Source: Marivirga harenae
Lineage (GTDB): Bacteria; Bacteroidota; Bacteroidia; Cytophagales; Cyclobacteriaceae
Assembly: GCF_030534335.1 (NCBI RefSeq)
Contig: NZ_CP130565.1
Location: 193,501-257,500 of the forward strand
DNA: 64,000 nucleotides
Direction of reading: 5' to 3'
The notes under the pieces: model-generated
What the model was told of the DNA's origin: nothing
Databases searched by the model: none
What the model saw: the letters and a program-made list of their open reading frames with translations, nothing else
Made by a program: the position numbers and the translations under genes
In this document: piece by piece, positions 3,035-34,017 of the stretch
Position numbering within the stretch: the stretch's first letter is position 1
Layout of the letters: every line of letters starts with the position of its first letter

Positions 3035-3108
3035 CGGGGTGTAGCGTAGCCCGGTATCGCGCCTCGTTTGGGACGAGGAGGTCGTAGGTTCGAATCCTGC
3101 CACCCCGA
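3035..3108 (+). tRNA. tRNA-Pro (anticodon UGG), insertion target of the element
   Basis: A 74-nt tRNA without encoded CCA. The acceptor stem pairs CGGGGTG with CACCCCG. The anticodon arm CCTCG/CGAGG encloses TTTGGGA with TGG at 3069-3071. The T loop is TTCGAAT. The last 16 nt (3093-3108) are repeated at 33928-33943 as part of a 90-bp direct repeat, so the gene is the attachment site and is kept intact on the left side of the element. Confidence 0.95.
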
Positions 3109-3182
3109 CTATTAGAGTTTAAACACTCACAAAAACCCCTTAAATTCAGTTTTAAGGGGTTTTTTATTTTATTTGTTTTCAA
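3093..3182 (+). repeat. Left attachment repeat (attL)
   Basis: This 90-bp stretch matches 33928-34017 with one difference (C at 3124, T at 33959). It covers the last 16 nt of tRNA-Pro and the rho-independent terminator. Weaker similarity continues for about 20 bp beyond the exact repeat. Confidence 0.9.
3134..3166 (+). terminator. Rho-independent terminator of the tRNA pair
   Basis: The stem ACCCCTTAAA (3135-3144) pairs perfectly with TTTAAGGGGT (3151-3160) around a 6-nt loop, followed by a T run. A second copy lies at 33970-34000 within attR. Confidence 0.85.
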
Positions 3183-3208
3183 ATAATACCAAATAAAAGC
3201 ATTTGCCG

Positions 3209-3250
3209 AGTGAACAATTCGGTGAACACCAAAATTTGGCTGGTGAACAC
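3209..3250 (+). promoter_or_regulatory. Candidate recombinase arm-type sites, left end
   Basis: Three copies of GTGAACA stand at 3210-3216, 3222-3228 and 3243-3249. The first two are 12 bp apart and form AGTGAACAATTCGGTGAACA at 3209-3228. The same arrangement recurs at 33851-33870 with 18 of 20 bases identical and in the same orientation. Repeats of this kind on both flanks of the core are what arm-binding domains of tyrosine recombinases recognise; the assignment is inferred. Confidence 0.55.
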
Positions 3251-3356
3251 TTTTATTTTAAGTTTACAGTTGTTGTCTGCTGCTAATACTATTTAGTTGC
3301 TTTTGTGTCAGTGCTCATTTTGAGCAATAGGTAATGTTTAACCTAAAATTACTGAC

Positions 3357-4598
3357 ATGCAAAGTACATTTAACATCTCGTTTCTAATCAGAAAAGCCAG
3401 AGGTTCTAAAGAAAACAGAACCATCTATGTTCGTATTAATGTAAATGGAAAAAGAGCTGAGTTTTCCTCTCAGCAGTCCATCCATGAGAAACATTGGGAT
3501 TCAAAAAAATGCTTTCCAAAGAGCAACACAATCGAACTCAAAAGAATATGTAATCACCTAGACAGAATAAAATTCAATCTGTCTGAAATCTATCGTGAAC
3601 ATATTATTCAAAACCCTTCCATTTCTTCAAAGGATATCAAAAACCTGTTTTTAGGAAATGGACCCTCGGAGGATAATTATCTTTCAGATATTCTCACTTA
3701 CCACGAAGAAAAAATGAAAAACACATTGGCTCCAGGTACACTAAAAAACTATGGTGCAACAGAAAATTATTTAAAACGATTTTTAGCAGCCAAGCATAAA
3801 ACGGATGACATCAAATTAAAAGACATAACTAGTAAATTCGTCTTTGATTTCGAATATTACTTGAGAACATCCAAGCCCATTGATCATCACAATCCACTTT
3901 CTAATAATGGAGTAATGAAGCATATGGAGCGCTTTAAGAAACTAATCAATCTCGCAATGAAAATTGAGTGGATTGAAAAGAATCCATTTAGAAATTTCAC
4001 TCCAAAATTCGACAGAGTTGAAAGAGAATTCTTAACCGAAGCAGAATTAACCAAAATTAAAGAAAAAGATTTTGGAAGAAGGTTAGAGCAAGTAAGGGAT
4101 ATTTTTGTGTTTAGCTGTTATACAGGATTATCCTTTATAGATGTAGCCAACTTATCCGAGGAAAATATCATAATTGGAATGGATGGCGAGAAATGGATCT
4201 CAACCCACCGACAGAAAACTTTTAACAAAGTATTTCTTCCATTACTACCTCAAGCCGAAGCAATATTGGAGAAGTATAAAGACAATCCGCAAGCTCAGCA
4301 CAGGGGTGTGCTACTTCCAGCAGCGTCCAATCAAAAAACAAACGCCTATTTAAAGGAGATTGCCGACATCTGCGAAATCAAGAAAAAGCTAACCTTTCAT
4401 ATAGCGCGTCATACCTTCGCTACAACGGTGACTTTAACCAATGGCGTTCCTATTGAAACGGTGAGCAAGATGCTTGGCCATACAAAACTGGCCACTACTC
4501 AAATTTATGCCAAGGTAGTAGAGAATAAAATCGGTACTGATATGGCGGCACTTAAGAAAAGGCTGAGCAACAACGAATTAGTAAAAAAGGCAGATTGA
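3357..4598 (+). CDS. Tyrosine recombinase (integrase) of the element
   Basis: A 413-residue site-specific recombinase with the Bacteroidota layout: an arm-binding domain at about 1-100, a SAM-like core-binding domain at about 105-210, and a catalytic domain at about 225-400. The C-terminal motifs are clear: H348-x-x-R351 in HIARH, H375 in GHTKLATT, and the nucleophile Y384 in QIYAKV. In the first catalytic box, where most relatives have Arg after TGL, this protein has Ser259 (CYTGLSFIDVANL). The same substitution is known in the IntDOT group, so the enzyme need not be inactive. The gene lies next to attL and reads into the element. A strong hairpin terminator overlaps its stop. Confidence 0.95.
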   Translation: MQSTFNISFLIRKARGSKENRTIYVRINVNGKRAEFSSQQSIHEKHWDSKKCFPKSNTIELKRICNHLDRIKFNLSEIYREHIIQNPSISSKDIKNLFLGNGPSEDNYLSDILTYHEEKMKNTLAPGTLKNYGATENYLKRFLAAKHKTDDIKLKDITSKFVFDFEYYLRTSKPIDHHNPLSNNGVMKHMERFKKLINLAMKIEWIEKNPFRNFTPKFDRVEREFLTEAELTKIKEKDFGRRLEQVRDIFVFSCYTGLSFIDVANLSEENIIIGMDGEKWISTHRQKTFNKVFLPLLPQAEAILEKYKDNPQAQHRGVLLPAASNQKTNAYLKEIADICEIKKKLTFHIARHTFATTVTLTNGVPIETVSKMLGHTKLATTQIYAKVVENKIGTDMAALKKRLSNNELVKKAD

Positions 4599-4611
4599 TC
4601 TGCCTTTTTTT
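4583..4611 (+). terminator. Terminator of the integrase gene
   Basis: GGCAGA (4589-4594), loop TTGA, TCTGCC (4599-4604), then seven T. An A run in front makes it able to work in both directions. The stem contains the last integrase codons. Confidence 0.85.
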
Positions 4612-4796
4612 GCTTTAAGGGCACAATAAATATAATATTAATTAGTTTGTTTTATTGTTGTTTAACTACTGTAGTATATTTATGAATATTGATATAGTAA
4701 TAAACAATTATAAACGAACCAATATTTCAGTCAAAATAGAACCAATGCTCCCCACTTTTGAACCAAAATTATTACAAACTCAAACCTTAGTGAAAA

Positions 4797-6008
4797 GTGA
4801 AGTATGAATTACAGTTATTTGACTATATCGTAAATGAATATTTTAATTCAAAAAACAATAGACCGCCTCTAAAAGAAGAAGAATTTAGAATATGGGCCGA
4901 AGACCTTGAGAGAGAAGAAGAGAGGATTAAACAATCCTTTATGATGTTAGCCTTCAGTGAAATTGAAGATAAGATCATCGAGCGTCAAATACAGCTTTAT
5001 CAACAAAAGCTAATCCTAATTTCCAATCATATCTCACAGCAAGTCGGTTACCTATCGATCGAATATGAGCTTCAGTTAAAAGATGGAGATTACCTTTCTC
5101 AACTGGGTTTAATACTTATTGATTGTATCACAGCATTATTGACTTTCATTGAAAAACACTTTACCAAATACTTTAGCCAGGATAGTCAAATTCCTACATC
5201 CTATTTTATCAATTCGCAGAATCAATTGAGGAATCAACTAGTAAGAGTTAAAGAATTAGGTAAGCTAAAGAAAATTGATTCCTCGCTCCTTAAGATTATC
5301 AATCATCATATCAATACATTTATTGACAATCCAAAAAATGCTTCCTACAGAAAACTCATTTATTGCAAAACCTTCCTCGAGGAAATTGAAACGATTCTTT
5401 CAAGAGATTTAAAAGGCATTCGGCTTGAGAAGCAATTTATTTCAAACTTACTCTACTTGAATTTTAATGTATTTGCAATTTACAACTATATCAGCCTCAG
5501 GATAAAGAAAAACTATCAATCTAAATCTACTTATAGAGAGCAATTATTGCTTCTGCAGCTGTTCAAAAAGCTCATCAATCAATCACAAGTGAAACCTGAT
5601 TTCGAATTCAACCAGGGTGTAGAAAGTCTAAAAGCAAGCCTAATAAATTGGGTCAATGAAGAGATATTCTTTTTCAAAGAAAGGAAGCAATTGGCAATTA
5701 AATTTAACCATCACCACACATTGATCAACAGGCCAGTATCAAACACCAAGATTTATAGCAAATTATCCGTAGGTCAATTAGCTTATTTAATGAAATTATT
5801 AGCAAACTCAAACATTATTGCTCCTGAAAATACCTCGAAGTTAGTAGAGTTCATTTCTAATAATTTCTCTACTAGTAGTCAAAAAGATATCTCACTCAAA
5901 AGCTTAAGAAACAAAATCTATTCTCCTGAAAATACCACCATTGAAAATGTTCAGGAAATAATGGAAACCCTGGTAGAAAAAGCCGAAAAAGATAAATCTT
6001 TAAATTAA
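4797..6008 (+). CDS. RteC-like protein
   Basis: A 403-residue, mostly helical, soluble protein without signal peptide. The last 90 residues contain the string LSVGQLAYLMKLL, then FISNNFSTSSQKDISLKSLR and an NKIYSPE motif. These resemble the conserved end of RteC proteins, which control excision of Bacteroides conjugative transposons such as CTnDOT. The N-terminal 300 residues are divergent and I recognise no domain there. It sits between the integrase and the excisionase-like gene, which fits a regulator of excision. I see no rteA/rteB two-component genes in the element. The assignment rests on pattern memory and is moderately sure. Confidence 0.6.
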   Translation: MKYELQLFDYIVNEYFNSKNNRPPLKEEEFRIWAEDLEREEERIKQSFMMLAFSEIEDKIIERQIQLYQQKLILISNHISQQVGYLSIEYELQLKDGDYLSQLGLILIDCITALLTFIEKHFTKYFSQDSQIPTSYFINSQNQLRNQLVRVKELGKLKKIDSSLLKIINHHINTFIDNPKNASYRKLIYCKTFLEEIETILSRDLKGIRLEKQFISNLLYLNFNVFAIYNYISLRIKKNYQSKSTYREQLLLLQLFKKLINQSQVKPDFEFNQGVESLKASLINWVNEEIFFFKERKQLAIKFNHHHTLINRPVSNTKIYSKLSVGQLAYLMKLLANSNIIAPENTSKLVEFISNNFSTSSQKDISLKSLRNKIYSPENTTIENVQEIMETLVEKAEKDKSLN

Positions 6009-6145: not shown

Positions 6146-6415
6146 ATGGCAGCAGAAGTTATCACAACAGACGACTTACGCGAATTCAAACTCGAACTCG
6201 TGGACGAATTCAAAAAGCTCCTTTCGGAGCAAAAAGGAGTTTCAACCAAAAAATGGCTGAAATCAGATGAGGTTAGAAAACTCCTGGGCATTAGTCCAGG
6301 AACACTTCAAAATCTCAGGGTAAACGGCACTTTGCCTTTCACTAAAATGGGCGGGGTTTTATACTACGATTCTCAGGACATTCACAGCATTTTGGAACAA
6401 AACAAAATAAGCTGA
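6146..6415 (+). CDS. Small HTH protein, excisionase-like
   Basis: An 89-residue protein. The first 40 residues are a helical, charged segment. Residues 45-85 are a MerR/excisionase-type winged helix: KKWLKSDEVRKLLGISPGTL, then an LPFTKMGGVLYYD wing and a short helix. Proteins of this size and form act as recombination directionality factors or small repressors in Bacteroidota elements. The stop shares one base with the ATG of the next gene (TGATG), so the two are translationally coupled; this ties it to the replication module. It may control both excision and replication, which is an inference. Confidence 0.75.
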   Translation: MAAEVITTDDLREFKLELVDEFKKLLSEQKGVSTKKWLKSDEVRKLLGISPGTLQNLRVNGTLPFTKMGGVLYYDSQDIHSILEQNKIS

Positions 6416-7329
6416 TGAATACTCAAGAAAACTCAGTAAAGGAACCGGTGAATTTCATTCACCAGTTCCTATCAGCAATGGATAAAATTTCTGAAACTCC
6501 TGAAATGAATCCGTCTCATGTTAGTCTCTACATTGGCTTGTTTACTATTTGGAATTATAGCCATTTTAAAAACCCTATTTCCATCAGTAGAAAAGAGGTC
6601 ATGACGGTTTCAAGAATAGGCTCAAAGCACACTTATCACAAGTGCTTAAAAGACCTCCACAAAATGGGCTTTCTGAAATATTTTCCATCTCACAATCCCA
6701 TGAAAGGTAGCCTAATAGAGATGTTCATTTTCGGTACAAGTACTGAACAAGTACTGAACAACCTTAGGGGCAATATCGGGACAAGTACTGCACTAGCTGG
6801 GGGCAATAGTGGTACAAGTAGTGAACAAGTAGTGCACCAGCTTAGGGGCAAAAGTGGTACAAGCAGTGAACAAGTACTGCACCCTTACATAAACAATACA
6901 AACTATATAAACAATAAACAAGATATATATGAAGAAAATAAAAAATCAGAAAAGGAAAAAAAAGGAAAAACTAAAAGCAGCACAAATTCAAGAGCTTCAG
7001 CTCCAGTCTCGGATTCTAGCGAAAACGCATCACCAAAAGATTCGCGTTTCTCACCACCATCAAAAAAAGAGCTAAAAGATTTCTTTGAAAAGCAAACCGA
7101 AAAATATTCTATTCCGGTTCGCTTCGCTCCCGTGGAGGCTGAAAAATTTTTCAATTATTATTCAGCAAAAGGCTGGAAAGTGGGCTCAAAGTCACCCATG
7201 AAAGATTGGAAAGCAGCTGTCCGAAACTGGCTCTTGAATTTCAAAAAATTCAATGGCATTCAAGACCAGGAAAACGAAGCTGGCAAACTCCACAACAATG
7301 AACAAAAAAGTTATGACATACCTCTCTGA
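6415..7329 (+). CDS. Probable replication initiator with iteron-like repeats in its gene
   Basis: A 304-residue protein. Residues 25-105 look like a winged-helix domain of phage replication/DnaD type (NPSHVSLYIGLFTIWNYSHF, then VSRIGSKHTYHKCLKDLHKM). Residues 107-158 are a run of 15-residue repeats (GTSSEQVVHQLRGKS and variants) encoded by 45-bp DNA repeats. Residues 165-220 are low complexity and charged. The C-terminal part (about 225-290) has the spaced tryptophans of DnaD/phage-O-like ends (GWKVGSKSPMKDWKAAVRNW). The next gene is a DnaC-like ATPase, so the pair resembles lambda O and P: initiator plus helicase loader. No similarity search backs the family name. The calling as initiator comes from domain shape, repeats and neighbour. 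Confidence 0.6.
   Translation: MNTQENSVKEPVNFIHQFLSAMDKISETPEMNPSHVSLYIGLFTIWNYSHFKNPISISRKEVMTVSRIGSKHTYHKCLKDLHKMGFLKYFPSHNPMKGSLIEMFIFGTSTEQVLNNLRGNIGTSTALAGGNSGTSSEQVVHQLRGKSGTSSEQVLHPYINNTNYINNKQDIYEENKKSEKEKKGKTKSSTNSRASAPVSDSSENASPKDSRFSPPSKKELKDFFEKQTEKYSIPVRFAPVEAEKFFNYYSAKGWKVGSKSPMKDWKAAVRNWLLNFKKFNGIQDQENEAGKLHNNEQKSYDIPL
6733..6886 (+). repeat. Iteron-like direct repeats, candidate replication origin
   Basis: Four direct repeats: 6733-6777 (45 bp), 6778-6810 (33 bp, an internal deletion), 6811-6855 (45 bp) and a partial copy from 6856. Each carries one or two copies of an 11-mer close to ACAAGTASTGM, at 6736, 6747, 6781, 6814, 6825, 6859 and 6870. Downstream is a strongly AT-rich tract at 6890-6965. 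Phased 11-mers followed by an AT-rich tract inside an initiator gene is how lambda-type origins are built. Confidence 0.6.
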
Positions 7330-7582: not shown

Positions 7583-8227
7583 ATGGACAATCAACCTAAA
7601 AACTACTCCTCCACCAAATTCCAATTTGAAAAATGCATTGATTTTCTGCATAAGGCAGGTCAATCAGAATTTGGAGATCATTTTAAAGTTTACCCTGCAG
7701 ACTATGAAATCATCTTCAAAATACTGGCGTATTTTTTCGAAGATGAAAAGCTATGTAAGCAGTACAAACTTTCAATAAGAAAAGGACTTCTTTTGACTGG
7801 CCCAGTTGGCTGTGGTAAAACAACCCTCATGATGCTATTCCGCCACTTCCTCCACTCAGTCCATAAATACCCAGTTAAATCAACAAGAGAAATTTCTTAC
7901 GAATTTCTCGACCATGGTTTTTCCATCATCAACAAATACTCAAAAGCCCACTTCCAACGCTACCAAGACCAAATGGTGCCACGAACCCTGTGCCTCGATG
8001 ACCTCGGCTTGGAATCCACAATCAAGCATTTCGGCAACGAGACCAACACTATAGCTGAAATACTTCTTAATCGCTATAGCCTTTTCACCTCCAGAGGAAT
8101 GATTACACATGCTACAACCAACTTAAATCCTGATGAATTGGAGAATCTCTATGGAAACAGAGTAAGGTCACGAATGAGAGAAATGTTTAATCTCATCTCG
8201 TTTAATTCAAAAGACAAAAGAATGTAG
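7583..8227 (+). CDS. DnaC/IstB-like AAA+ ATPase, probable helicase loader
   Basis: A 214-residue ATPase. The Walker A motif is GPVGCGKTT with K79, the Walker B motif is LCLDDLG at about residues 133-139, and a sensor-like TTN motif follows (ITHATTNLNPDELENLYGNR). An arginine-rich box near the end (RVRSRMREMF) fits the arginine finger region. Loaders of this type place the replicative helicase at an origin; IstB-type relatives assist transposases. Because the gene follows a phage-O-like initiator and no transposase is present, a helicase loader is the better reading. Confidence 0.75.
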   Translation: MDNQPKNYSSTKFQFEKCIDFLHKAGQSEFGDHFKVYPADYEIIFKILAYFFEDEKLCKQYKLSIRKGLLLTGPVGCGKTTLMMLFRHFLHSVHKYPVKSTREISYEFLDHGFSIINKYSKAHFQRYQDQMVPRTLCLDDLGLESTIKHFGNETNTIAEILLNRYSLFTSRGMITHATTNLNPDELENLYGNRVRSRMREMFNLISFNSKDKRM

Positions 8228-8286: not shown

Positions 8287-8670
8287 TTAGGAAGCCTTAC
8301 TTTCTATTTTTACTTTATCAATAATATCTAGAATATCTTTTTCAATTGGCATGGATTGCAACGGAGGAACATTAGCTCCCCCTGTATTCCCCACAGGAAT
8401 CCTTCCCACAAAAGATTTCACACCCCCTACAAGTAATCTAGGTATCTGCCCAATAATTTCTTTAGTGCTTTTTATTCTTATGCCAAATTTTAACATCAAC
8501 CAATGAACTTCGGAATGTTGAAAAGGATAGGGCTGGCCTAAGACATGAGCCCGTTCTAACTGTTGCCAGGCTTTTGGCAATTCTTTTTTATTTAAGTATT
8601 CCCTATATAATTCCAATTCTTTGCAGTAATAAATTTTGAGTCTTTCAGGCATTAATGTATTGAAATTCAT
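8287..8670 (-). CDS. DUF3703 family protein
   Basis: A protein of 127 residues from the chosen ATG; an ATG 13 codons further upstream is open but adds a non-conserved extension. The body carries the DUF3703 pattern: AWQQLERAHVLGQPYPFQHS, then VHWLMLKFGI and GRIPVGNTGGANVPP. The biochemical role is unknown. The family is commonly found beside heavy-metal transporters and metalloregulators, as here, where it is the last gene downstream of the efflux operon, 187 bp after the Fur-type gene. It converges with the helicase-loader gene. Confidence 0.75.
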   Translation of the reverse strand: MNFNTLMPERLKIYYCKELELYREYLNKKELPKAWQQLERAHVLGQPYPFQHSEVHWLMLKFGIRIKSTKEIIGQIPRLLVGGVKSFVGRIPVGNTGGANVPPLQSMPIEKDILDIIDKVKIESKAS

Positions 8671-8857
8671 ATCAAAATATTTTTTGAACGAAAATACAGG
8701 ATAATTCAATGCAGTGGAATTGCAATTATTGGAAAGTAAAAATGCTTTATATTATTTCTTCAAATTGCTCTATGAACAAGTCTAGGCATACGGCCAAAAA
8801 TATAATTAAAGTTTGAAATTTTTCAAGCTTACCCACTATTAACAATCCATTTACAAC

Positions 8858-9298
8858 TCAACTAGCGCATTTCCCGCAAATACCCTTTACTACCAAATTC
8901 GCCTCTTCTGATATGAATTTTTGTGGTAAACTAATCTCTGGGATTTTATATTTAGGTAGGCAAATGGTCTCATTACATTCCTTGCAATGAAAATGGACAT
9001 GCAAGTCTCGCTCTAATTCACATTTGCAACCATCTTCACATAATGCATATTTGGGCGCACCTGTACCGTCATCAATGCTATGGACTAGCCCATTTTCCTG
9101 AAATGTTTTAAGCGTGCGAAATAAGGTCACTCTATCAGATTTTTCAACCTCCTTTTCCAAATCAGTCAAACTAATGGCAATTTCTTGATCTAGCAAGGCT
9201 TCTAATACCAACAGACGCATAGCCGTTGGTCTAATATTCTTTTCTTGTAAATTCTTTTCAAGTTCCCTTATTTTCATTTCTTGATCTTTAACAATCAT
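8858..9298 (-). CDS. Fur-family metalloregulator (Zur-like)
   Basis: A 146-residue protein with an N-terminal winged helix (about 15-80; the recognition region is KSDRVTLFRTLKTFQENGLV) and a C-terminal metal/dimer domain. Cys105-x-x-Cys108 and Cys141-x-x-Cys144 form the structural zinc site, and the histidine cluster H100, H102, H104 (DLHVHFHC) is the expected sensory ligand set. Fur-family proteins repress transport genes when bound to metal. Its start overlaps the end of the CDF gene by 11 bp, so it is in the same operon as the efflux genes. Regulating an export operon with a Fur-type protein is less usual than with ArsR or MerR types. Which metal it senses cannot be read from sequence. Confidence 0.85.
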   Translation of the reverse strand: MIVKDQEMKIRELEKNLQEKNIRPTAMRLLVLEALLDQEIAISLTDLEKEVEKSDRVTLFRTLKTFQENGLVHSIDDGTGAPKYALCEDGCKCELERDLHVHFHCKECNETICLPKYKIPEISLPQKFISEEANLVVKGICGKCAS

Positions 9299-10175: not shown

Positions 10176-10177
10176 AA

Positions 10178-10969
10178 TTATTTTGAAAGATTTAAAATTC
10201 TTATTGCGCCTCGAATCACAAAGGTGAAAACTATTCCACCAATTACTAAATCTGGCCATTTACTCTCTAATAAATACACCAGTACACCCGCCAAAATCAC
10301 ACCGCCATTCACAATTATATCATTAGAGGTGAAAATGCTACTCGCTTGCATGTGAGCCTCATTACTTTTTGCTTTATTGATTAGCCAAAGTGTCACTAAA
10401 TTTCCTGCTAGGGCTAGGATTGAAATTATAATCATCCAGTGAAACAAAGGTGTTCCACTTTCAGTAAAAAATCTTCTCAATACCTCCAAAAAACCTAAAA
10501 GAGCCAAGCCCATTTGAAAATAGCCACTTATTTTTGCCACTTTCTTTTTCCTAGCAACAGCAGCACCAACTGCCAATAAACTAAGCCCATAAACAATAGA
10601 GTCTGCTAGCATGTCCAAGGAATCAGCAACTAAGCCCATAGAGCTTGAAATCCAGCCTGTAGTCATCTCAATTACAAAAAAGACTAAATTTATTCCTAAC
10701 ACCCACCAAAGTACTTTTCTCTGCTGCGTATGATCAATAATTTCTGGCAAGTCTGCTTCTTGGGTGTTTACTAATTTTTCATTCAGTTGAAGTTCGGCTA
10801 GGGCGTTTTGAATGCCATCAATTTCAGCACTATGATATACCTGCAATTGTCGATGGGGAATATCAAATTCAAGCTGCTTAACCTCTTCTAAACTTTCTAG
10901 CTTCATTCGAATCATCTGTTCCTCAGAGGCGCAATCCATTTTATGTATTTTAAAAGTGCTCTTATTCAT
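10178..10969 (-). CDS. CDF-like cation transporter with N-terminal HMA-like domain
   Basis: A 263-residue protein. Residues 1-70 resemble a heavy-metal-associated domain, but with a single cysteine (MDCASEE, Cys13) instead of CxxC. After a linker, residues 88-262 are a CDF-type membrane region with ADSLDMLADS in helix 2 and TSNDIIVNGG in helix 5. The usual C-terminal cytoplasmic domain is missing. In this family the aspartates of helices 2 and 5 bind the ion. It is followed 2 bp later by a second, full-length CDF gene. The two may work as a pair, or this one may be a metal-sensing variant; neither can be decided here. Confidence 0.8.
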   Translation of the reverse strand: MNKSTFKIHKMDCASEEQMIRMKLESLEEVKQLEFDIPHRQLQVYHSAEIDGIQNALAELQLNEKLVNTQEADLPEIIDHTQQRKVLWWVLGINLVFFVIEMTTGWISSSMGLVADSLDMLADSIVYGLSLLAVGAAVARKKKVAKISGYFQMGLALLGFLEVLRRFFTESGTPLFHWMIIISILALAGNLVTLWLINKAKSNEAHMQASSIFTSNDIIVNGGVILAGVLVYLLESKWPDLVIGGIVFTFVIRGAIRILNLSK

Positions 10970-24552: not shown

Positions 24553-24563
24553 AAAAGCTCCAA

Positions 24564-26529: not shown

Positions 26530-27789
26530 TTATGACTTTCTTTTCTTAAGAGCTTGCCATTTTAAGTAAGTTCCCGAACGCCACAACCACTCTAGTGGAC
26601 CGTATAAAAAATACTTGAGCCATATTCTGCTCAATAGAATCTGGAGAACAAAAATGATGATACCGAATACAAATAATTCTGTGGCACCCCAACTACTGAA
26701 AACTGATCCAAAAGCCCATGCAGAAAACAAAATGGCACCAATGACCCCTTGCATTTCATAATTGGTTAGCGCCATTCGACCATAAGGAGATAATACGTCA
26801 AGGTATTTGCTAAAACTGCTGGTATTATACAGAATAATAAATCCCATCCCCAAAGCAGCTGAGAAAAATACTAAATTGAGATCTCCCAAAGTTTTAACCA
26901 CCAACATCATCGCAGGTATATATTCATCACCCGGTCTCATTAATGATCGCACTTCTACAGCAGGAAAGAGGCTTTCAATCCAATTCACGAATAGGGCAGC
27001 TACTGCAAAACCGACAAACAGGAAAAGATTCCGTCTTTTTCTTTCACCCAGAGTCTCAAAAAAGCGGATTCTACCCACAACCAATCCTAAAATAAACAAA
27101 GCAAAAGTAAGATAGCCTCGCCCATACATACCAAACTGATAGTTCAGCTTCCCTTCAAATCTTTCAGCATAATTGTGCTTTACAGAATTAATAAAAGAGG
27201 GGTTTTGGATATGCGCTGGAATTTCCCTTGCTTCAGGAGAACCGCTTTCAGTTGGGTTTTCTGCAGTTTGCGCTTTCAAGTTACTATTATGAATCCTAGA
27301 CTGGATAGCTCGAGGCGTTCCAATTAGCAGAAGAGCAGCCACCAGTAGTAAACTCCAGTTTCTCAGAGAATATAGTGGGATGAGTAAAAGTCCAAAAACG
27401 GCATATATGGAAATGATTTCAATACTGTAAAATGAATGGCCAACTACTCCAATCAGTAACAAAATGAACATCCTCCATATAAATCGCTTTCTAAAATCTA
27501 TCCCTTTCTTGGCTGCCCTGTCCATCTGAATAAAAAAACTGAGTCCGAAAAGAAAAGCAAAAATATTGATAAACCTGCCCATAATCAGATTACTGCCAAT
27601 CCATTGAATCGTTTTATCCATTTCCGGAAAGCGAGTTTGAGCTTGCTCAACTGAAACTTCAAATATTCCGAAATTTTGCAACATATGCATCAGAATAACA
27701 CCCAGAAGAGCAAAACCCCTTAAAGCATCTAGGACTGTAATTCGTTTTAAAGGTTGGGTTAATGTGGTGGGCTGACTTACATTTTTCAT
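26530..27789 (-). CDS. DUF418 family membrane protein (YeiB-like)
   Basis: A 419-residue integral membrane protein with about ten helices. The opening ITVLDALRGFALLGVILMHM is the family signature (heparan-alpha-glucosaminide N-acetyltransferase/acyltransferase-like, YeiB and DUF418 group). A second signature near the end is DVLSPYGRMALTNYEMQGVI, and the C-terminal DUF418 domain contains GPLEWLWRSGTY. Function is unknown; relatives are thought to handle acylated or small organic substrates in the membrane. It closes the row of minus-strand genes that begins beside the AraC gene, about 95 bp after the flavodoxin gene. Confidence 0.88.
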   Translation of the reverse strand: MKNVSQPTTLTQPLKRITVLDALRGFALLGVILMHMLQNFGIFEVSVEQAQTRFPEMDKTIQWIGSNLIMGRFINIFAFLFGLSFFIQMDRAAKKGIDFRKRFIWRMFILLLIGVVGHSFYSIEIISIYAVFGLLLIPLYSLRNWSLLLVAALLLIGTPRAIQSRIHNSNLKAQTAENPTESGSPEAREIPAHIQNPSFINSVKHNYAERFEGKLNYQFGMYGRGYLTFALFILGLVVGRIRFFETLGERKRRNLFLFVGFAVAALFVNWIESLFPAVEVRSLMRPGDEYIPAMMLVVKTLGDLNLVFFSAALGMGFIILYNTSSFSKYLDVLSPYGRMALTNYEMQGVIGAILFSAWAFGSVFSSWGATELFVFGIIIFVLQILLSRIWLKYFLYGPLEWLWRSGTYLKWQALKKRKS

Positions 27790-27883
27790 TTTGATACACT
27801 ATTTTTATATAACAAATGTAGTGTCCTCAATTCATCTCTTACTTATACAGAATACAGCTTAACCTACCAATTTTACTGTTATA

Positions 27884-28507
27884 CTACTTCATGATGTGAA
27901 GGCTTTCTAGCCAATCCTTCACTTCACCTTTTACTTCCTTGCGTTTTTCACCCTCCATTACAAAATAGATTCCGTCTCTTTCTACTCCACCTTTAGTCGA
28001 ATAGCCTTCCAGAATGGTACTCTCAGGACAAAGCTCCTTTACGGTATTAAAACTACTTCCAACTCCATACCCAGCATTAGTATTAAATGGGATGACTGTT
28101 TTACCACTAAGATCATATTTGGTCAAAAAGCTTTTCATTGGGGGAGGTAATTGCATATCCCAGGTCGGGAATCCAATGAAAATGATATCATACTTTTGGA
28201 TATTTTTAATTTCAGTTTTGAGAGGAGGTAAATAGCTAGTTTCATTTTCTTGGTCCACTTGCGAAACTATAGCCTCATAATCTTCCGGATAAGGTGTTTT
28301 CAACTCCAATTCAACAATTTCCCCACCGACTTCCTCATAAATCATCTTGGCAACAGCCTGAGTATTATTCGTTCTGCTTAGGTACACTATTAGCACATCA
28401 TCAGACTTAATTGCTTGATCCAAGGTCTTATTTTCATTAGCCTGGCTGCAAGCACTAATAGGTATAATGAATAAAATACCGACCAAGAGATAATTAAGAA
28501 ATTGCAT
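27884..28507 (-). CDS. Flavodoxin-like lipoprotein
   Basis: A 207-residue protein from the ATG at 28507, which gives a lipoprotein signal peptide with lipobox ISAC (Cys20). The flavodoxin fold follows: phosphate loop VYLSRTNNTQAVA for FMN, then IIFIGFPTWDMQLPPPM and PFNTNAGYGVGSS loops. Proteins like this (Flavodoxin_4 type) bind FMN and transfer electrons to unknown partners. An exported flavodoxin is notable, because FMN would have to be loaded or exported too. It is 32 bp downstream of the cupin gene in the same row. Confidence 0.85.
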   Translation of the reverse strand: MQFLNYLLVGILFIIPISACSQANENKTLDQAIKSDDVLIVYLSRTNNTQAVAKMIYEEVGGEIVELELKTPYPEDYEAIVSQVDQENETSYLPPLKTEIKNIQKYDIIFIGFPTWDMQLPPPMKSFLTKYDLSGKTVIPFNTNAGYGVGSSFNTVKELCPESTILEGYSTKGGVERDGIYFVMEGEKRKEVKGEVKDWLESLHIMK

Positions 28508-28539
28508 TACACTATAGTTATTTATGCTAGTCACTTTGC

Positions 28540-29394
28540 TTATTTATCACTGTCGCCACCTAAGAGCTTCGTAAAGGAAAGAGCGCTAAGCTTCCAGTTT
28601 CCATCTTCTTTCACATATACCTCAGTCACTTCGAAAGGATTAGTGACTTCATTTCCACCGACTACAGCTAAAAGTGTAATGTTATTCAATAAAATGGCGG
28701 TATTTCCCATTACATTAAGCGATACTTCTTTGACATCTGCTTTCTTATACCAAATACCCCCACTTTCAATCACACTAAGTTCCTTTTCCTTGCCCCAGCT
28801 TCCTCCCATGTGGACGAAGACTGATTGCTCATGAAATAAATCATCCAGTTGACCTACATTTTTATCCGCCATCCAATCCCATTTCTTTTTGGATAAATCC
28901 ATGATTTCCTTTTCTACATTTTTTGTATTGGAAACAGTTAATTCAATACTATAAAATTCTTCCTCCTTTACCGGTTCAAGCCATTCTGTAGGCTCATTAC
29001 CTGTAATGGCAAGGTAAGTAACTCCTGTCTGAGGGGTGGCGGCATGCCAATGTGCTACTCCAGGTGCACATTTCACAACATCTCCTTCTTTTACAGTTTG
29101 CACTTTCTTGCCCCTTTCCTGATAAAAACCGATGCCTTCTGTGATAATTAATTGCTGTCCGGCAGGATGCTTATGCCAATCGAGTTTTGCTCCTTTAGCA
29201 AATACAGCTTGTACGATACTATAATCAAAGGTTTTATCAGCATCACTCACATGATAGAGCCAAACATCCCCACTGTGGTGTACATTAGGTGCTTTTTCTC
29301 CTTTGGGAAATGTTGAATCATCTTGTGCATTTACTTGCATGCAAAGCAATAAACTGAATAGAATAGCGGAATAATTTATATACTTTTTCATCAT
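28540..29394 (-). CDS. Exported cupin fused to an NTF2-like (DUF4440) domain
   Basis: A 284-residue secreted protein with signal peptide ending near VNAQ. Residues 30-145 are a cupin: LDWHKHPAGQQLIITEGIGF gives the first metal motif and PGVAHWHAATP the second. Residues 158-275 are an NTF2-like DUF4440 domain (IMDLSKKKWDWMADKNVGQL, then FVHMGGSWGKEKELSVIESG). Each domain alone is common; the cupins are related to those that cluster with carboxymuconolactone decarboxylases. The substrate is unknown. It lies in one row with the hydrolase and the flavodoxin. Confidence 0.85.
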   Translation of the reverse strand: MMKKYINYSAILFSLLLCMQVNAQDDSTFPKGEKAPNVHHSGDVWLYHVSDADKTFDYSIVQAVFAKGAKLDWHKHPAGQQLIITEGIGFYQERGKKVQTVKEGDVVKCAPGVAHWHAATPQTGVTYLAITGNEPTEWLEPVKEEEFYSIELTVSNTKNVEKEIMDLSKKKWDWMADKNVGQLDDLFHEQSVFVHMGGSWGKEKELSVIESGGIWYKKADVKEVSLNVMGNTAILLNNITLLAVVGGNEVTNPFEVTEVYVKEDGNWKLSALSFTKLLGGDSDK

Positions 29395-29431
29395 AACTAT
29401 ATTTATATTTCAATTCGTAGTGTATTAATAC

Positions 29432-30529
29432 TTAGTCAAGTCCTTTTTCTTGTAGCCAATTGAACATAAGCTCGGCAATCTTTTCATTGTTTAAATCTGA
29501 CATTGGGAAGTGGCTATTCCCTTTAATTCCAATATCTGGCAAATATATCAGGGTCACATCCCCGCCATAATCATTGACTACATCTCTCCATTTTTTAGCC
29601 ATAGCCAATGCTGCCCTCCACTGCTCTTGCCCTGGATATTTCACAGGCGCTGTTGGAATATAATCACCGTAATAAATAATAATCGGGATCTGTGTTAATT
29701 TCTTGAAATCCGACATGGAAACCCCTCTGGCGCTCAACTTTCCACCAACATATGATATGGGTTCTGGTATTTCATTTTCAGGAAAAACAAAATTACTGCC
29801 CGGCTCATAGGAGACAATGCCTTTTATATTATCATTTTGAAGTGCAGTTAACCATCCCTGACCTCCACTATGCGAGTGAGTTACCAATATGCCAGCACCA
29901 ACTTTATCAAATAATGCGGATACTGCATTGATGTTAACTTCTATGTCGAGAGGGCCAGTATCTGGTGTCATCTGTCTGTAAAATTGGTTTAAAGCCAGTG
30001 AATCTTGAGGAAACTGGCTTCCTTTGAAAAACTCATTATCAATTCCCAATCGGAAAATCCCAAACCAGAGCTGATTATCAGGTTTGGCTGTAATAGTAGT
30101 GGGTTCTGTACTTCTCCCTGCTTTTCCTCTCCTTGGTTGATCAATCAAATAAACAGGAAATTGCTTCTTAAGAAAAATATTCTGAAAACCTTCTCTTCCA
30201 TCTGGGGTCGTCTCCCAGGTTTTAGCAGATTGCCCGTAACCATGCCAGAAAATCAGTGGCAGCTTACGTTTATCCTGTGGGATTTGATAGAATACATAAG
30301 CGTGATCGCCATGCAAAGTCTGTCCTTGTGAGGCTTGATTGGAAGGATTAAAATAACCATGGCCTATCGGGTCAAAGGTGCCTGAAGCTTTTACAATTTC
30401 TCCACCGACCATAAAGCTACCTTGTTCCTCAATAATTAAGGGTTGCTTTTGTGCATGACTTGAAAAAACAGTCATCATCAGAACAACAGCAAGAAAAGCA
30501 AGAAATGAAATGTTATTTTGATAGTGCAT
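29432..30529 (-). CDS. Secreted alpha/beta hydrolase
   Basis: A protein of 365 residues from the ATG at 30529; the frame is open to 30550, but the shorter start gives the proper signal peptide (ends at SSHAQ). The fold shows FWHGYGQSAKTWETTPDGRE (oxyanion region), the nucleophile elbow THSHSGGQGW and the catalytic histidine near SHFPMSDLNNEK. This group of hydrolases acts on esters or related substrates in the periplasm. It is the first gene of the row next to the divergent AraC gene. Confidence 0.85.
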   Translation of the reverse strand: MHYQNNISFLAFLAVVLMMTVFSSHAQKQPLIIEEQGSFMVGGEIVKASGTFDPIGHGYFNPSNQASQGQTLHGDHAYVFYQIPQDKRKLPLIFWHGYGQSAKTWETTPDGREGFQNIFLKKQFPVYLIDQPRRGKAGRSTEPTTITAKPDNQLWFGIFRLGIDNEFFKGSQFPQDSLALNQFYRQMTPDTGPLDIEVNINAVSALFDKVGAGILVTHSHSGGQGWLTALQNDNIKGIVSYEPGSNFVFPENEIPEPISYVGGKLSARGVSMSDFKKLTQIPIIIYYGDYIPTAPVKYPGQEQWRAALAMAKKWRDVVNDYGGDVTLIYLPDIGIKGNSHFPMSDLNNEKIAELMFNWLQEKGLD

Positions 30530-30765
30530 AGTATCCTTTTTGGTCAACAAGCATAATTTACATAATTATTTGAGAAAATTTTGTTCGTCAATCATTAGCC
30601 AAGTCCTTAACTTCAATTATGAATGACAGCTGCTACAAATTTGAACCTCTTCTTAATGAGATTACTTATACATTCTACTGCTATTCTTACCAATTTTACG
30701 GATTCAACAATTGAGTCGCAGGAATTAAAAAAGTATTGTATTAGTTTTGATAAAAAGTAGTTGTT
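30530..30765. other. Divergent promoter region, hydrolase and AraC genes
   Basis: About 235 bp between divergently transcribed genes. It must carry both promoters and is the likely binding site of the AraC protein. I found no clear pair of direct repeats that would mark an operator. Confidence 0.4.
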
Positions 30766-31662
30766 ATGGACGAGATACAAAAATTTGAAACTGTTAGCCA
30801 ATACAATGCATACAACAATCATGAAACACTACACCCTCTGGTTACAGTTGTGGATTTCTCAAAGGCTCATCCAAGGTATCTAAAAAAGACATATTTCGGT
30901 CTGTATCTTGTACTCTTGAAAGAGATAAACTGTGGGGATCTAAGATATGGAAAACAAACTTACGATTATCAGGAAGGCACTTTGATATTCGTTGCACCGG
31001 GGCAGGTCATTTCAATTGATAATAACAACCAACTCTATCATCCCAAAGGACATGGAATTGCCTTCCATCCAGATCTTATCAAGGGCACTTCACTGGGTAA
31101 ACACATTGATCACTATTCGTTTTTTAGCTATAAGGTAAATGAAGCACTGCATGTTTCTGAACGCGAGCGAAAAATGGTAATGGACTGTTTTTCCAAAATC
31201 AGCTATGAACTAGAGATGAATGTTGACAATCACAGCAAAAAATTAATTACCTCTAATATTGAATTGCTCTTAAATTATTGCGATAGGTTTTATGACCGCC
31301 AGTTCATTACCCGTGACAATGTGCATAAAGGAATTTTGAAAAGGTTTGAAACTTTATTGAATGCTTACTTTTCTTCTGATAAACCCGAAACTATTGGCTT
31401 GCCTTCTGTGGCTTATTGCGCAGATGAACTCAACCTATCATCAAACTATTTTGGTGATTTGATTAAAAGGGAAACTGGTAAAACTGCACTTGAATTCATT
31501 CAGCTTAAGTTAATTGAAGAGGCGAAAGAAAGAATCTTTGACCCAAGTAAGTCACTAAGCCAAATTGCTTTCGACCTGGGCTTTAAATACCCACAACATT
31601 TTACTCGCGTTTTTAAACAGCATGTAGGCGTATCTCCAAAAGAATATCGGAATATGAATTAA
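30766..31662 (+). CDS. AraC-family transcription activator
   Basis: A 298-residue regulator. Residues 20-110 are a cupin-like sensory half (FVAPGQVISIDNNNQLYHPK, then GIAFHPDLIKGTSLG). Residues 200-298 hold the double helix-turn-helix: LSSNYFGDLIKRETGKTALE and LSQIAFDLGFKYPQHFTRVF, ending with the family motif GVSPKEYR. It faces the hydrolase-cupin-flavodoxin-DUF418 row and probably switches it on in response to an unknown small molecule. Confidence 0.92.
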   Translation: MDEIQKFETVSQYNAYNNHETLHPLVTVVDFSKAHPRYLKKTYFGLYLVLLKEINCGDLRYGKQTYDYQEGTLIFVAPGQVISIDNNNQLYHPKGHGIAFHPDLIKGTSLGKHIDHYSFFSYKVNEALHVSERERKMVMDCFSKISYELEMNVDNHSKKLITSNIELLLNYCDRFYDRQFITRDNVHKGILKRFETLLNAYFSSDKPETIGLPSVAYCADELNLSSNYFGDLIKRETGKTALEFIQLKLIEEAKERIFDPSKSLSQIAFDLGFKYPQHFTRVFKQHVGVSPKEYRNMN

Positions 31663-31687
31663 CCCTAATTCGATTAAAAACAAAAGA

Positions 31688-31712
31688 CCGTAGCTATGAA
31701 CTACGGCCTTTC
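31688..31712. terminator. Bidirectional terminator between convergent genes
   Basis: CCGTAG (31688-31693), loop of 7 nt, CTACGG (31701-31706), followed by a CCTTTCTT tract on one side and preceded by AAAACAAAAG on the other. It lies between the AraC gene and the convergent small membrane-protein gene, whose stop it overlaps. Confidence 0.65.
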
Positions 31713-31879
31713 TTATTGATTTTCTTGACCACCCATTTCATGGCCAAAGACATACAAAAACTAACTAATGCTCCTACAGCTGCCAAGATACAAGTCTTGA
31801 TAATATCAGCACTTTGCAAATTGACTAGCACTGTTAGGATTGTTCCACCAGCGGTGCCTGCCTTACCGTGGACTTGCAT
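31694..31879 (-). CDS. Small membrane protein of unknown function
   Basis: A 61-residue protein. The sequence GTAGGTILTVLVNLQSADII is followed by one strong membrane helix (about 30-50) and a basic end (KWVVKKINKKGRSS). The start overlaps the DUF5675 gene by 17 bp. Size and layout recall small holin-like or immunity proteins, but no signature proves it. It seems to be conserved as part of a set with the next two genes; that is from memory of similar small proteins in Bacteroidota. Confidence 0.6.
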   Translation of the reverse strand: MQVHGKAGTAGGTILTVLVNLQSADIIKTCILAAVGALVSFCMSLAMKWVVKKINKKGRSS

Positions 31880-32531
31880 CTCCCTTGTTTTTTACCTCAG
31901 GCAGTGGAGGTATTTTGACCTCATCATCCACCGTTACCTGACTGACTGCAGTCAGGACACTGGCACCAACGGTTAGATATCCTGCAACTGTGATCAAGCC
32001 AGCTGGCAATGTGATGGGCGCTCCTAAAATAGCACCTCCTGCAGCTGCTAATATCAAGCCGACTGTCCTTAATTTTCTAAACAACTTTGGAGTGGGCTTC
32101 TTCGCCCTTTCTAAAATATTCATAGCTGATTTCTCTTTAATAGTGATGTAAATATGATTCTGGTTCTCTTTGGCCTCTTCAAAGACTTCCAAAAGCCTGT
32201 CCATGGCTTCACTCGATCGTATTCCTTTTCCTATTCCTTTTAGCTCCGAGACTGGTGCAATGCAGCCTTCCAGTTCTGTCCGGGCATCATTCGCAGGATG
32301 GATTAAAATCCAACTCCTTCCAGGAACACTTTTCAATATCAGGTGAAATCCCCTTTCATGGGTAATCCTCTTTTCTAAAAGATATCTACCTTCAGGAATG
32401 CAACTGATATTTAATTCATTGTCCTTCCAGGGAAGTTCAATGGTATGACAGATTTTTTCACTGCCATACCTCAAGCTTCCATTGGTTCCACCTGACCTAT
32501 AATTTCGAATAAGTTCAAAACTCATTTCCAA
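31863..32531 (-). CDS. DUF5675 family protein with C-terminal membrane part
   Basis: A 222-residue protein. Residues 1-130 match DUF5675: LIRNYRSGGTNGSLRYGSEK, TIELPWKDNELNISCIPEGR, and RSWILIHPANDARTELEGCI. This fold resembles a small peptidoglycan- or ligand-binding barrel with a conserved Cys, but no activity is known to me. Residues 150-205 contain two glycine/alanine-rich hydrophobic segments (GLILAAAGGAILGAPITLPA). The gene overlaps the small membrane-protein gene and follows the unknown gene by 3 bp, so three genes are translated together. Confidence 0.75.
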   Translation of the reverse strand: MEMSFELIRNYRSGGTNGSLRYGSEKICHTIELPWKDNELNISCIPEGRYLLEKRITHERGFHLILKSVPGRSWILIHPANDARTELEGCIAPVSELKGIGKGIRSSEAMDRLLEVFEEAKENQNHIYITIKEKSAMNILERAKKPTPKLFRKLRTVGLILAAAGGAILGAPITLPAGLITVAGYLTVGASVLTAVSQVTVDDEVKIPPLPEVKNKGDASPR

Positions 32532-32534
32532 ATT

Positions 32535-33305
32535 CTATAAAGGTCCAGGAATAGTATTGTCAATCTCTACCAATGCAAGAGCATTGTACGCACCGTTTTT
32601 AAGCGGGTACATAGTTCCATTTACTTCCTGCAGGAATTCCACCCCAAAAAGTAAAAAAATAGGTTGGTCTCCTGTGCTTGGAACCGTAGCGGTCAACGTG
32701 ATAGCGGCCTCCGATTGCGGACCAATAGCGATTTCATTACTTTCATCTGTGTCCAGATTAAAAGTTTCCTCTTCAAAATCCACCTTACTTGCAGCTGCCA
32801 CAAGTCGCATGTGGGATGCACCACCCGGGGCAGCAAAAGTATTCTGCGGGATGAAATCAGGAATCTCCACTGTTGCCTCACCACTTGCACGGTCAATAGC
32901 TGCCGTAAAAGGCGCATACATGGTTGCATTCAGCTTTCCGTTTTGATTAAACTCAAAACCCTTCAGCAGCTCAACAGCACCTTCACTAGCCGTTCTTTGT
33001 CCTCTATCGTTGGATGTATCGCTTTTCACGACCTTGACCATTTCTCTGGTCATTCGGCTGGCCACTCTACCATCAGCCGCCTTCAAAAGCAACGGGCGAA
33101 CCGAAGTCCTCAAAAGCCTTCCAGCCTTTCCGGCTCTCCCGAATTCAGCGCCATTCTCTCGAGTCCGTTGGAAAGCTGGATCATTCTTCATCCGCTCTTT
33201 GTCAATACCTCCTTTTTCTCTGGCCAAGTATCCATCTTTCGTTTTGTAGAAAGACAAATCTCCGATTTTGCCTTTCAGTTTGATAATTCCCTTTTGTCTT
33301 GCCAT
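32535..33305 (-). CDS. Unknown protein of a Bacteroidota-specific family (MARQKG type)
   Basis: A protein of 256 residues from the ATG at 33305. The frame extends to 33413, but the shorter start gives the conserved opening MARQKGIIKLKGKIGDLSFY. A second conserved box follows (NDPAFQRTRENGAEFGRAGK). The C-terminal half (about 130-256) is beta-rich and ends in YPLKNGAYNALALVEID. I recall relatives in Bacteroidota, usually next to DUF5675, but no function. The Lys/Arg-rich front and beta-rich back might belong to a particle or tail-like structure; this is speculation. It is the first gene of the trio. Confidence 0.65.
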   Translation of the reverse strand: MARQKGIIKLKGKIGDLSFYKTKDGYLAREKGGIDKERMKNDPAFQRTRENGAEFGRAGKAGRLLRTSVRPLLLKAADGRVASRMTREMVKVVKSDTSNDRGQRTASEGAVELLKGFEFNQNGKLNATMYAPFTAAIDRASGEATVEIPDFIPQNTFAAPGGASHMRLVAAASKVDFEEETFNLDTDESNEIAIGPQSEAAITLTATVPSTGDQPIFLLFGVEFLQEVNGTMYPLKNGAYNALALVEIDNTIPGPL

Positions 33306-33467
33306 AATTGAAAAATATATTTGATGAGCCACCAAAGTATTCCCCAAATGAGCGTTTGTCAAAAACTGGCTTCCGTTAAAGGTCGTGTTGACTGCATTGG
33401 CAAAATATGACAATCAAGCTTTCTAAAAATTAGCTATATTAGAGTATATCAAAGCCTAGGATAAAGT

Positions 33468-33695
33468 ATGGATAAAGTATCAATAAAATATGGAGAAATG
33501 ATCTTAAAAAGAACCGTCATATACCCCAAGGACATACAACGCATTACAGGCAAAAGCGAGCGCACCGGAAGACGAATATTAGAACGTATAAGAGAGCAAA
33601 AAGGAAAAGAGAAGCATCAGCTCATCACAGTTTCCGAGTTCTCAGATTACACCGGAATAGATGCTGAAACAGTCCAGGAATACCTCACCGATTAA
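33468..33695 (+). CDS. Small HTH-like DNA-binding protein
   Basis: A 75-residue basic protein. The pattern YPKDIQRITGKSERTGRRIL, followed by an EFSDYTGIDAETVQEYL helix, looks like a compact helix-turn-helix that reads DNA. It diverges from the DUF5675 trio and could be its repressor. It is the last gene before the right repeat of the element; it might also act as a recombination directionality factor. Family not recognised. Confidence 0.6.
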   Translation: MDKVSIKYGEMILKRTVIYPKDIQRITGKSERTGRRILERIREQKGKEKHQLITVSEFSDYTGIDAETVQEYLTD

Positions 33696-33850
33696 GCCAA
33701 ATTTTTAGGTTCGAATCCAGAAATTTTCCGCCTTTTATTCATAAAATTTGCCCTTTTTTGTGTATATTTAACATATCAAAGAAAGGGTCTTTGATAACTG
33801 TTGCTTATTGAATCACTGATACAAAATCGAACATTTGAGACTAAAATAGT

Positions 33851-33870
33851 GGTGAACAATTAGGTGAACA
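33851..33870 (+). promoter_or_regulatory. Candidate recombinase arm-type sites, right end
   Basis: Two GGTGAACA units 12 bp apart, 58 bp before the right repeat. The 20-bp block is 18/20 identical to 3209-3228 and in the same orientation. See the left-end entry. Confidence 0.55.
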
Positions 33871-33927
33871 GCAAATACTGTAAAAACTTAACTAACTGAA
33901 TTATAGAGGTTAATATCATAGGGTCGC

Positions 33928-34017
33928 AATCCTGCCACCCCGACTATTAGAGTTTAAATACTCACAAAAACCCCTTAAATTCAGTTTTAAGGGGTTTTTT
34001 ATTTTATTTGTTTTCAA
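33928..34017 (+). repeat. Right attachment repeat (attR)
   Basis: A copy of 3093-3182: the final 16 nt of tRNA-Pro and its terminator (stem 33970-33979 with 33986-33995). The rest of the tRNA is missing here; the base before the repeat already differs. This marks the right border of the element. Confidence 0.9.

What the first reader, a model, noticed from the sequence alone, without database searches (positions are those of the whole stretch)
3093..34017. A 30.8-kb integrative element in tRNA-Pro carrying metal, mercury, defence-like and unknown cargo
Two 90-bp direct repeats with one mismatch share the tRNA-Pro 3' end and its terminator. An integrase gene lies directly inside the left repeat. 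The borders are thus visible to the base. The gene mix does not match a conjugative transposon that I know.
Basis: partly seen in the sequence, partly recalled or inferred. Interest (0 to 1): 0.75.

Follow-up and report, generated by a model that had tools for sequence, protein, structure and literature searches.

The report
Replicating integrative element beside proline tRNA
This is a real mobile DNA element that inserts next to a transfer-RNA gene in a marine bacterium; it carries metal genes and what looks like its own copying machinery but no visible transfer machinery, and it shares an unstudied module (a folded RNA-like stretch plus small unknown genes) with islands in other bacteria of the same class.

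Summary
Confirmed, with corrections. The window is from a Marivirga chromosome. An element of about 30.8 kb sits at tRNA-Pro (3093-33944). The true duplicated core is 17 bp, the tRNA 3' end; the rest of the 90-bp repeat is an element-borne terminator whose right copy is best read as a relic of a second element. Two other Marivirga species carry the element at the same site, two have an empty site; one of the latter carries most of it in tRNA-Met with another integrase. Cargo DNA is 92.5-99.7% identical between species whose flank is 78-82% identical. A relative left a circular form: 'plasmid' p1 of Marivirga BKB1-2 is its own chromosomal element joined at attP. No relaxase, conjugation or virion gene was found. 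The backbone looks like a lambda-type replicon: an initiator gene containing iterons and AT-rich repeats, then a DnaC-like loader. The right end is a conserved module: covarying structure R1 (no Rfam match), a 54-aa ORF, DUF5675, unclassified protein P7 and a 75-aa HTH-like gene. P7 lies within 3 kb of R1 in 9 of 12 loci outside the host's family. Best reading: a replicating, helper-moved element of an unnamed Bacteroidia family; the transfer route is unproven.

The parts
3035..3109 (+). tRNA-Pro (TGG), integration target
3093..3109 (+). left att core, 17 bp, tRNA 3' end
3110..3203 (+). element-borne terminator and left end
   Evidence: 3093-3182 is 100% identical to the left ends in G003 and G004
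3357..4598 (+). tyrosine integrase
   Evidence: Pfam; 98% identical in G003 and G004 at the same tRNA
4797..6008 (+). P1, unknown protein
   Evidence: no Pfam, PHROG or NCBIfam match at the limits used (only E 0.11); DNA 100.0% identical to M. sericea
6146..6415 (+). HTH_17, excisionase-like
6415..7329 (+). P2, replication-initiator-like protein (role inferred)
   Evidence: PHROG matches of unknown function; repeats inside the gene
6736..6883 (+). iteron array inside P2 (predicted origin)
6889..6927 (+). AT-rich 9/18-bp repeats (predicted melting region)
7583..8227 (+). DnaC-like helicase loader
   Evidence: phrog_50, 9e-20
8287..8709 (-). DUF3703 protein
8858..9298 (-). Fur-family regulator
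9288..10259 (-). CDF cation efflux
10178..10969 (-). HMA plus short CDF protein
11028..12341 (-). CusB/HlyD membrane fusion protein
12272..16678 (-). RND pump fused to outer-membrane efflux domain
16974..17321 (-). DUF6660
17809..18276 (+). DUF1905 protein
18339..19166 (-). ankyrin repeat protein
19445..20482 (+). RhuM family, PADLOC candidate PDC-S05
20503..21426 (+). P4, unknown gene after RhuM
   Evidence: no family match; only E 0.04 in PHROGs
21932..22339 (+). ArsR regulator
22336..22968 (+). MerT-HMA fusion
22971..24317 (+). MerA-like reductase without C-terminal Cys pair
24346..24552 (+). 68-aa Cys-rich protein
25703..25859 (+). H1, diverged second copy of structure R1
   Evidence: 34.3 bits, E 5e-5
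26120..26277 (+). R1, conserved covarying structure
26270..26434 (+). 54-aa ORF, MFKLIFRVR...SPLPF
   Evidence: open in 22 of 22 copies read; for copies without it
26442..26478 (+). intrinsic terminator
26486..31681 (.). inserted cassette: DUF418, flavodoxin, cupin-DUF4440, an ORF without Pfam match (looks like a hydrolase, recalled), AraC
   Evidence: families; absent at this point in G003, G004 and G009; same cassette in another locus of G004
31682..31712 (-). terminator on the DUF5675 side
31863..32525 (-). DUF5675 domain plus hydrophobic C-terminal stretch (read from the sequence)
32535..33305 (-). P7, unclassified conserved protein (start corrected)
33468..33695 (+). 75-aa HTH-like gene (HTH75) beside the right end
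   Evidence: weak HTH_23, E 0.012, below cut-off
33928..33944 (+). right att core, 17 bp
33945..34036 (+). probable relic of another element's left end (terminator copy)

Best explanation
A non-conjugative integrative element. Shown or strongly supported: a tyrosine-integrase element duplicates a 17-bp core identical to the tRNA-Pro 3' end and supplies a replacement terminator, so the tRNA stays whole; a relative of this element forms circles carrying attP. Inferred: the HTH_17 protein directs excision; the excised circle replicates like lambda, with P2 binding iterons inside its own gene, the neighbouring AT-rich repeats melting, and the DnaC-like protein loading the host helicase; transfer depends on a helper (a conjugative element or a phage) acting on a site in the conserved right-end module (R1, 54-aa ORF, DUF5675, P7, HTH75). 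Cargo enters at fixed points of that module, and cores are reshuffled by recombination between co-resident elements.
For: Same element at the same tRNA in G003 and G004, no element in G005 and G009. Most of the backbone and cargo in tRNA-Met of M. arenosa with a 55% identical integrase. Flank identity 78-82% against 95.7-98.1% (metal genes) and 96.0-99.7% (mer) across G003, G004 and G009; one 2,347-bp run is identical to M. sericea. p1 aligns end to end with its chromosomal element, with one attP whose left arm is that of attR and right arm that of attL. Iteron-like repeats inside P2 in 8 of 10 Marivirga copies tested and AT-rich repeats in 10 of 10. The hallmark genes recur together in other genera and families.
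Against: No excised form of this exact element was seen; p1 belongs to a tRNA-Met relative. No replication assay; no iteron array in own2, G005 and G179 (AT-rich repeats only) and no repeat at all in P2 of G365 and G335. No helper or oriT/pac site was identified. rep-dnaC identity (78.7-89.6%) is lower than cargo identity, so the element is a mosaic rather than one recent transfer. Only 58 of the 189 gaps between p1 and its chromosomal copy lie in homopolymers, so p1 could be a diverged plasmid instead of a poorly polished circle.
Confidence: 0.72

Rival explanations
1. A relaxase-less mobilizable element (iOriT type): R1 or another hairpin of the 24.6-26.5 kb region is an oriT used by a conjugative element.
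For: Dense hairpins: of the nine folds tried in this region, seven had z of -2.9 or below and two (25080-25210, 25330-25470) did not; R1 folds nearly as well on either strand; no relaxase found in the element.
Against: No relaxase family among the 25 listed Pfam families of 76 ORFs near R1 in other genomes; 52 further families were not listed, so this is weak. R1 precedes genes (54-aa ORF or DUF6943), which suits a leader RNA.
Confidence: 0.3
2. A phage satellite: induced by a helper phage, replicating with its own O/P-like module and packaged in helper capsids.
For: Int, HTH, initiator and helicase-loader layout; phage-like DnaC loader.
Against: No terminase, capsid or packaging family found (Pfam; PHROGs for 10 proteins); P7 has no match in 50,697 phage records or, in a scan for close relatives only, in IMG/VR. 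The element with cargo is 27-34 kb in three hosts, large for known satellites (recalled).
Confidence: 0.25
3. A decayed prophage or ICE that lost its transfer genes and is now an immobile island.
For: No virion or conjugation genes found.
Against: Open integrase frame, near-identical DNA between species, different insertion sites, and a circular relative; P7 kept at 63-67% in the closest other genera.
Confidence: 0.08
4. The 90-bp right repeat is the host's own attB terminator, not a relic of a second element.
For: In G005 the host side of the tRNA-Met site resembles the element terminator (90% over about 101 bp).
Against: Five other Marivirga genomes (G003, G004, G005, G008, G009) show a different host terminator at this tRNA-Pro.
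Confidence: 0.22

Closest known systems
Riemerella anatipestifer 10K genomic island (PMC6764341, abstract and passages seen)
   Same: Bacteroidota island in a tRNA gene (tRNA-Arg), integrase-driven integration and excision, circular form, 12 ORFs, mostly hypothetical.
   Different: 53-bp att; its genes were not compared with this element here; no metal cargo mentioned in the passages seen.
Relaxase-less integrative mobilizable elements (iOriT; PMC11389934, passages seen)
   Same: Integrase, no mating apparatus, no relaxase, cargo.
   Different: No oriT shown here; has a lambda-like replication module.
Phage-inducible islands / phage satellites (recalled)
   Same: Int, HTH and replication initiator without virion genes.
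   Different: No packaging or capsid-remodelling gene found; large metal cargo.
NBU and CTnDOT-type elements of Bacteroides (recalled)
   Same: Bacteroidota-type tyrosine integrase; NBUs use tRNA 3' ends.
   Different: No mob, primase or tra gene found.

Membership tests
tRNA-integrated genomic island with tyrosine integrase | Integrase next to a duplicated tRNA 3' end, with empty sites in relatives | tested here: met
ICE | Relaxase plus type IV secretion genes | tested here: not met
   31 of 43 ORFs >=80 aa scanned against Pfam, the other 12 overlap longer scanned ORFs
IME with relaxase (iMOB) | Own relaxase | tested here: not met
   same Pfam scans; PHROGs and NCBIfam for 10 proteins each
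IME without relaxase (iOriT) | oriT recognised by a helper relaxase | not testable with these tools
   structured region found, function unknown
Phage satellite | Helper-phage dependence and packaging | not testable with these tools
   no packaging gene found
Temperate phage | Capsid, tail and terminase genes | tested here: not met
   PHROGs for 10 proteins
mer operon with canonical MerA | MerA with C-terminal Cys pair | tested here: not met
   ends in ...DIVYMV, no CC pair; below TIGR02053 cut-off
Known RNA family (Rfam 15) for R1 | Match to a covariance model | tested here: not met
   no match at E <= 1 within 24.6-26.5 kb

The most novel reading that the evidence does not exclude
The element is one member of an undescribed, class-wide family of Bacteroidia integrative elements defined not by transfer genes but by an end module: structured leader R1 with a 54-aa ORF or DUF6943, then DUF5675 (possibly a membrane-bound YkuD-like wall enzyme), P7 and a 75-aa HTH gene, beside a tRNA. 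The module would be a new way for non-conjugative elements to be transferred or kept, with R1 as a new RNA.
Probability: 0.35. Interest if true: 0.8.

Novelty: new variant of a known kind. Interest (0 to 1): 0.6.

Why it matters
Many genomic islands have no known way to move. Here the ends, sites without the element, an excised circle of a relative and a likely replication origin of one island family can all be read from public genomes, and the islands share a conserved module of an unclassified protein, DUF-only genes and a covarying structure without Rfam match. That makes a defined set of candidates for testing how such islands replicate and transfer in Bacteroidota.

Tried and rejected
Conjugative transposon: no relaxase or tra family in the Pfam scans. 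Prophage: no virion family. P7 as a viral structural protein: no match in the phage records, none in a close-relative scan of IMG/VR; Foldseek gave no hit at E <= 0.001 in PDB or BFVD. P7 as a relative of DUF6266: hhalign of the P7 alignment against one DUF6266 protein gave no support. The hairpin motif as a genome-wide REP: 12 places in 4 of 10 Marivirga genomes. DUF5675 fold: model with mean pLDDT 67.8; best PDB hits Tlde1a (E 0.06 and 0.17) and DpaA (0.57), none significant, suggestive only. RNA strand of R1: alifold energies -110.6 (+) and -106.1 (-), with 113 and 85 G-U cells, do not settle it. P1 as an RteC relative (recalled idea): no such Pfam match. R1 always beside P7: rejected, see the full report. 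Paper searches: DUF5675 gave 2 Vibrio phage papers; DUF6943 and DUF6266 none; broader searches listed 15, 12, 0, 12 and 10 papers, no listed title being about these elements (searches had more papers than were listed). Only listings were seen, except the abstract and passages of PMC6764341 and passages of PMC11389934. The library holds open-licence papers only.

Full report
What is there. The window is G000:C1:193501-257500 of a 4.37-Mb chromosome. Named records that carry the same DNA are Marivirga, and G001-G009 are of the same genus as G000, so the host is a Marivirga. I identify G003 as M. sericea (contig length 463,646, NZ_FXAW01000004.1), G009 as M. arenosa (3,942,954 bp, NZ_CP129970.2) and contig 2 of G005 as the 25,320-bp plasmid p1 of Marivirga BKB1-2.

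Borders. The repeats are real. Relatives show what they are. In G003 and G004 the left end has the same 90 bp as the window, but the right end shares only the first 17 (G003) or 19 (G004) bases, after which the host's tRNA terminator follows. The host terminator (AAGCCAGTAG..CTACTGGCTT type) also follows tRNA-Pro directly in G005, G008 and G009. I count G005 and G009 as sites without an element; G008 has a further core-like piece downstream. Of eight other Marivirga genomes examined at this tRNA (G002-G009; G001 was not), two carry this element (G003, G004). G006 carries a different element with the same right-end module. G007 starts like G006 but its contig ends. G002 has another sequence and a 49% identical integrase nearby. 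In the window the right core is followed by a copy of the element's own left end (93% over about 121 bp), so the simplest reading is that a second element once lay to the right and only its left tip remains. The tRNA-Pro site is a hotspot: the right-flank DNA of M. sericea lies about 68 kb from the tRNA in the window's genome, about 49 kb in G004, 5.2 kb in G009 and 3.9 kb in G005.

Mobility. The left flank is 82.2% (G003), 80.3% (G004) and 78.4% (G009) identical to the window. Within the element, metal genes are 98.1, 95.7 and 97.8% identical, the ankyrin-RhuM block 96.4, 95.4 and 92.5%, and mer genes 96.0, 96.4 and 99.7%. A 2,347-bp run (4575-6921) is identical to M. sericea, and a 1,275-bp run (5196-6470) to M. 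arenosa. In M. arenosa most of the backbone and cargo sits by tRNA-Met with a 55% identical integrase and att repeats of its own. Against a single recent transfer: rep-dnaC is only 78.7-89.6% identical, so modules have different histories.

Circular form. NZ_CP129969.1 ('plasmid p1', circular, 25,320 bp) aligns end to end with the element at tRNA-Met of its own chromosome at 98.2%, with 181 mismatches and 189 gap openings. int, P1, the DnaC-like gene and DUF5675 are frame-broken in p1 and open on the chromosome. The high share of gaps suggests a poorly polished assembly of the excised circle rather than a diverged plasmid; that is inference, and only 58 of the 189 gaps lie in homopolymers of three or more, which does not help it. 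The p1 junction has the left arm of attR and the right arm of attL, as attP should.

Replication. P2 (6415-7329) holds iteron-like repeats (ACAAGTACTGA and longer units) followed by AT-rich 9-mers. In one search the ten Marivirga copies were W, G003, G003C17, G004el, G004C567, G009a, G009b, G006b, own2 and G005: iteron-like repeats in the first eight (G004C567 at the score limit), AT-rich repeats in all ten. Outside the genus G179 had AT-rich repeats, G365 and G335 none, G354C7 and G372 (short fragments) none; no P2 was found in two further stretches. The next gene is a DnaC-like loader. By analogy with lambda O/P (established knowledge) this predicts an origin inside the initiator gene.

No transfer genes. 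Of 43 ORFs of at least 80 aa in the element, 31 were scanned against Pfam; the other 12 overlap longer scanned ORFs on the other strand. No relaxase, T4SS, terminase or capsid family appeared.

Right-end module. The stretch 24.6-26.5 kb looked noncoding at first. It holds R1 (26120-26277) and a diverged second copy H1 (25703-25859). On 21 aligned copies (19 distinct), R1's structure has 98.0% paired cells, 9 pairs changed on both sides (1 of 500 shuffles reached that) and a covariation score of 0.169, against 0.059 +/- 0.008 in shuffles (0 of 500) and at most 0.048 when slid. The structure was derived from the same alignment and the sequences are related, so these controls lean in its favour. 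In the genus and family copies R1 is followed by an ORF of 53-58 codons, open in 22 of 22 copies read; 21 end in LPF and one in VPF; the +1 frame has stops in 17 of 22 and the +2 frame in 22 of 22. Of 35 R1 places, two more (L157, L161) have the 54-aa ORF, one (L084) is cut to 33 aa, and 10 of the 12 loci outside the host's family lack it. A + strand terminator follows at 26442. Rfam has no match there at E <= 1.

How far the module reaches. A class-level scan with the R1 model (stricter filters) hit 11 of 395 genomes. All 12 hit loci outside the host's family, from nine genomes, were read. P7 lies within 3 kb of R1 in 9 of 12; in 8 of these 9 R1 points towards P7 (L216 was called on the other strand); 6 of 12 have a tRNA within 5 kb of R1. 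L205 has DUF6266 there instead; L210 and L214 have only integrases. The weakest of these R1 matches have E near 1e-3. Against a strict link: of the ten R1 loci from other genera of the host's order, only four have P7 in the stretch read (L082, L155, L157, L161); L083, L084, L085, L087, L089 and L092 do not, and L083 and L084 have mer genes beside R1. DUF6943 was found in 8 of 12 class loci, 12 of 21 stretches from other genera and 0 of 22 Marivirga stretches; HTH75 in 5 of 12, 10 of 21 and 13 of 22 (some stretches are parts of one locus).

P7 and relatives. P7 matched 55 of 148 genomes of the host's family, with up to 15 matches in one genome, and has no Pfam, NCBIfam or PHROG match. P2 matched 34 of 148. 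P2 and P7 lie about 6-24 kb apart in G002, G335, G349, G032, G292, G391, G365, G372, G354 (two places) and G179; in G348 they are about 81 kb apart, and in G389, G404, G405 and G408 on different contigs. Not every genome with both was measured. In G002, G335, G349, G032, G292, G391 and G365 no integrase of this type was found in the stretch read, and in G354 and G372 it lies on the P7 side, so the integrase looks exchangeable.

Cargo. The 5.2-kb cassette 26486-31681 is absent at this place in G003, G004 and G009 and present in another locus of G004 between the same neighbours, with 25-bp, 92% identical repeats near its ends. G006 has 42-bp terminator repeats at the same boundary. M. sericea carries an 8.7-kb insert at 25888/26024.

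Verdict. The island is real and its family is mobile. It is a known kind (a tRNA-targeted integrative element) in a variant whose replication layout and end module I found in none of the paper listings searched. How it passes between cells is unresolved.

Noticed in passing
window 22971-24552: The MerA-like reductase lacks the C-terminal Cys pair, but the next gene is a 68-aa protein ending in ...SCC; it could supply the Cys pair in trans (speculation).
   Followed up: partly
window 19445-21426: RhuM gene followed by an unknown 307-aa gene; RhuM matches PADLOC candidate PDC-S05.
   Followed up: partly
G000:C1 about 2427844-2444804 and 3201720-3227803: Two further loci with the right-end module in the same genome, by tRNA-Met and tRNA-Arg.
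   Followed up: partly
window 25203-25330: A 126-bp stretch between CATGGTTTTT and AAAAACCACG is replaced by a shorter hairpin in G003 and G004; mechanism unknown.
   Followed up: no
L037-L039 (G009 2403089-2435924): Three att-like copies around the M. arenosa tRNA-Met element suggest tandem accretion there too.
   Followed up: no
window 41881-48660: Cadherin-repeat protein of 2,259 aa with a type IX secretion C-terminal domain beside PorP/SprF, in the hotspot right of the element.
   Followed up: no
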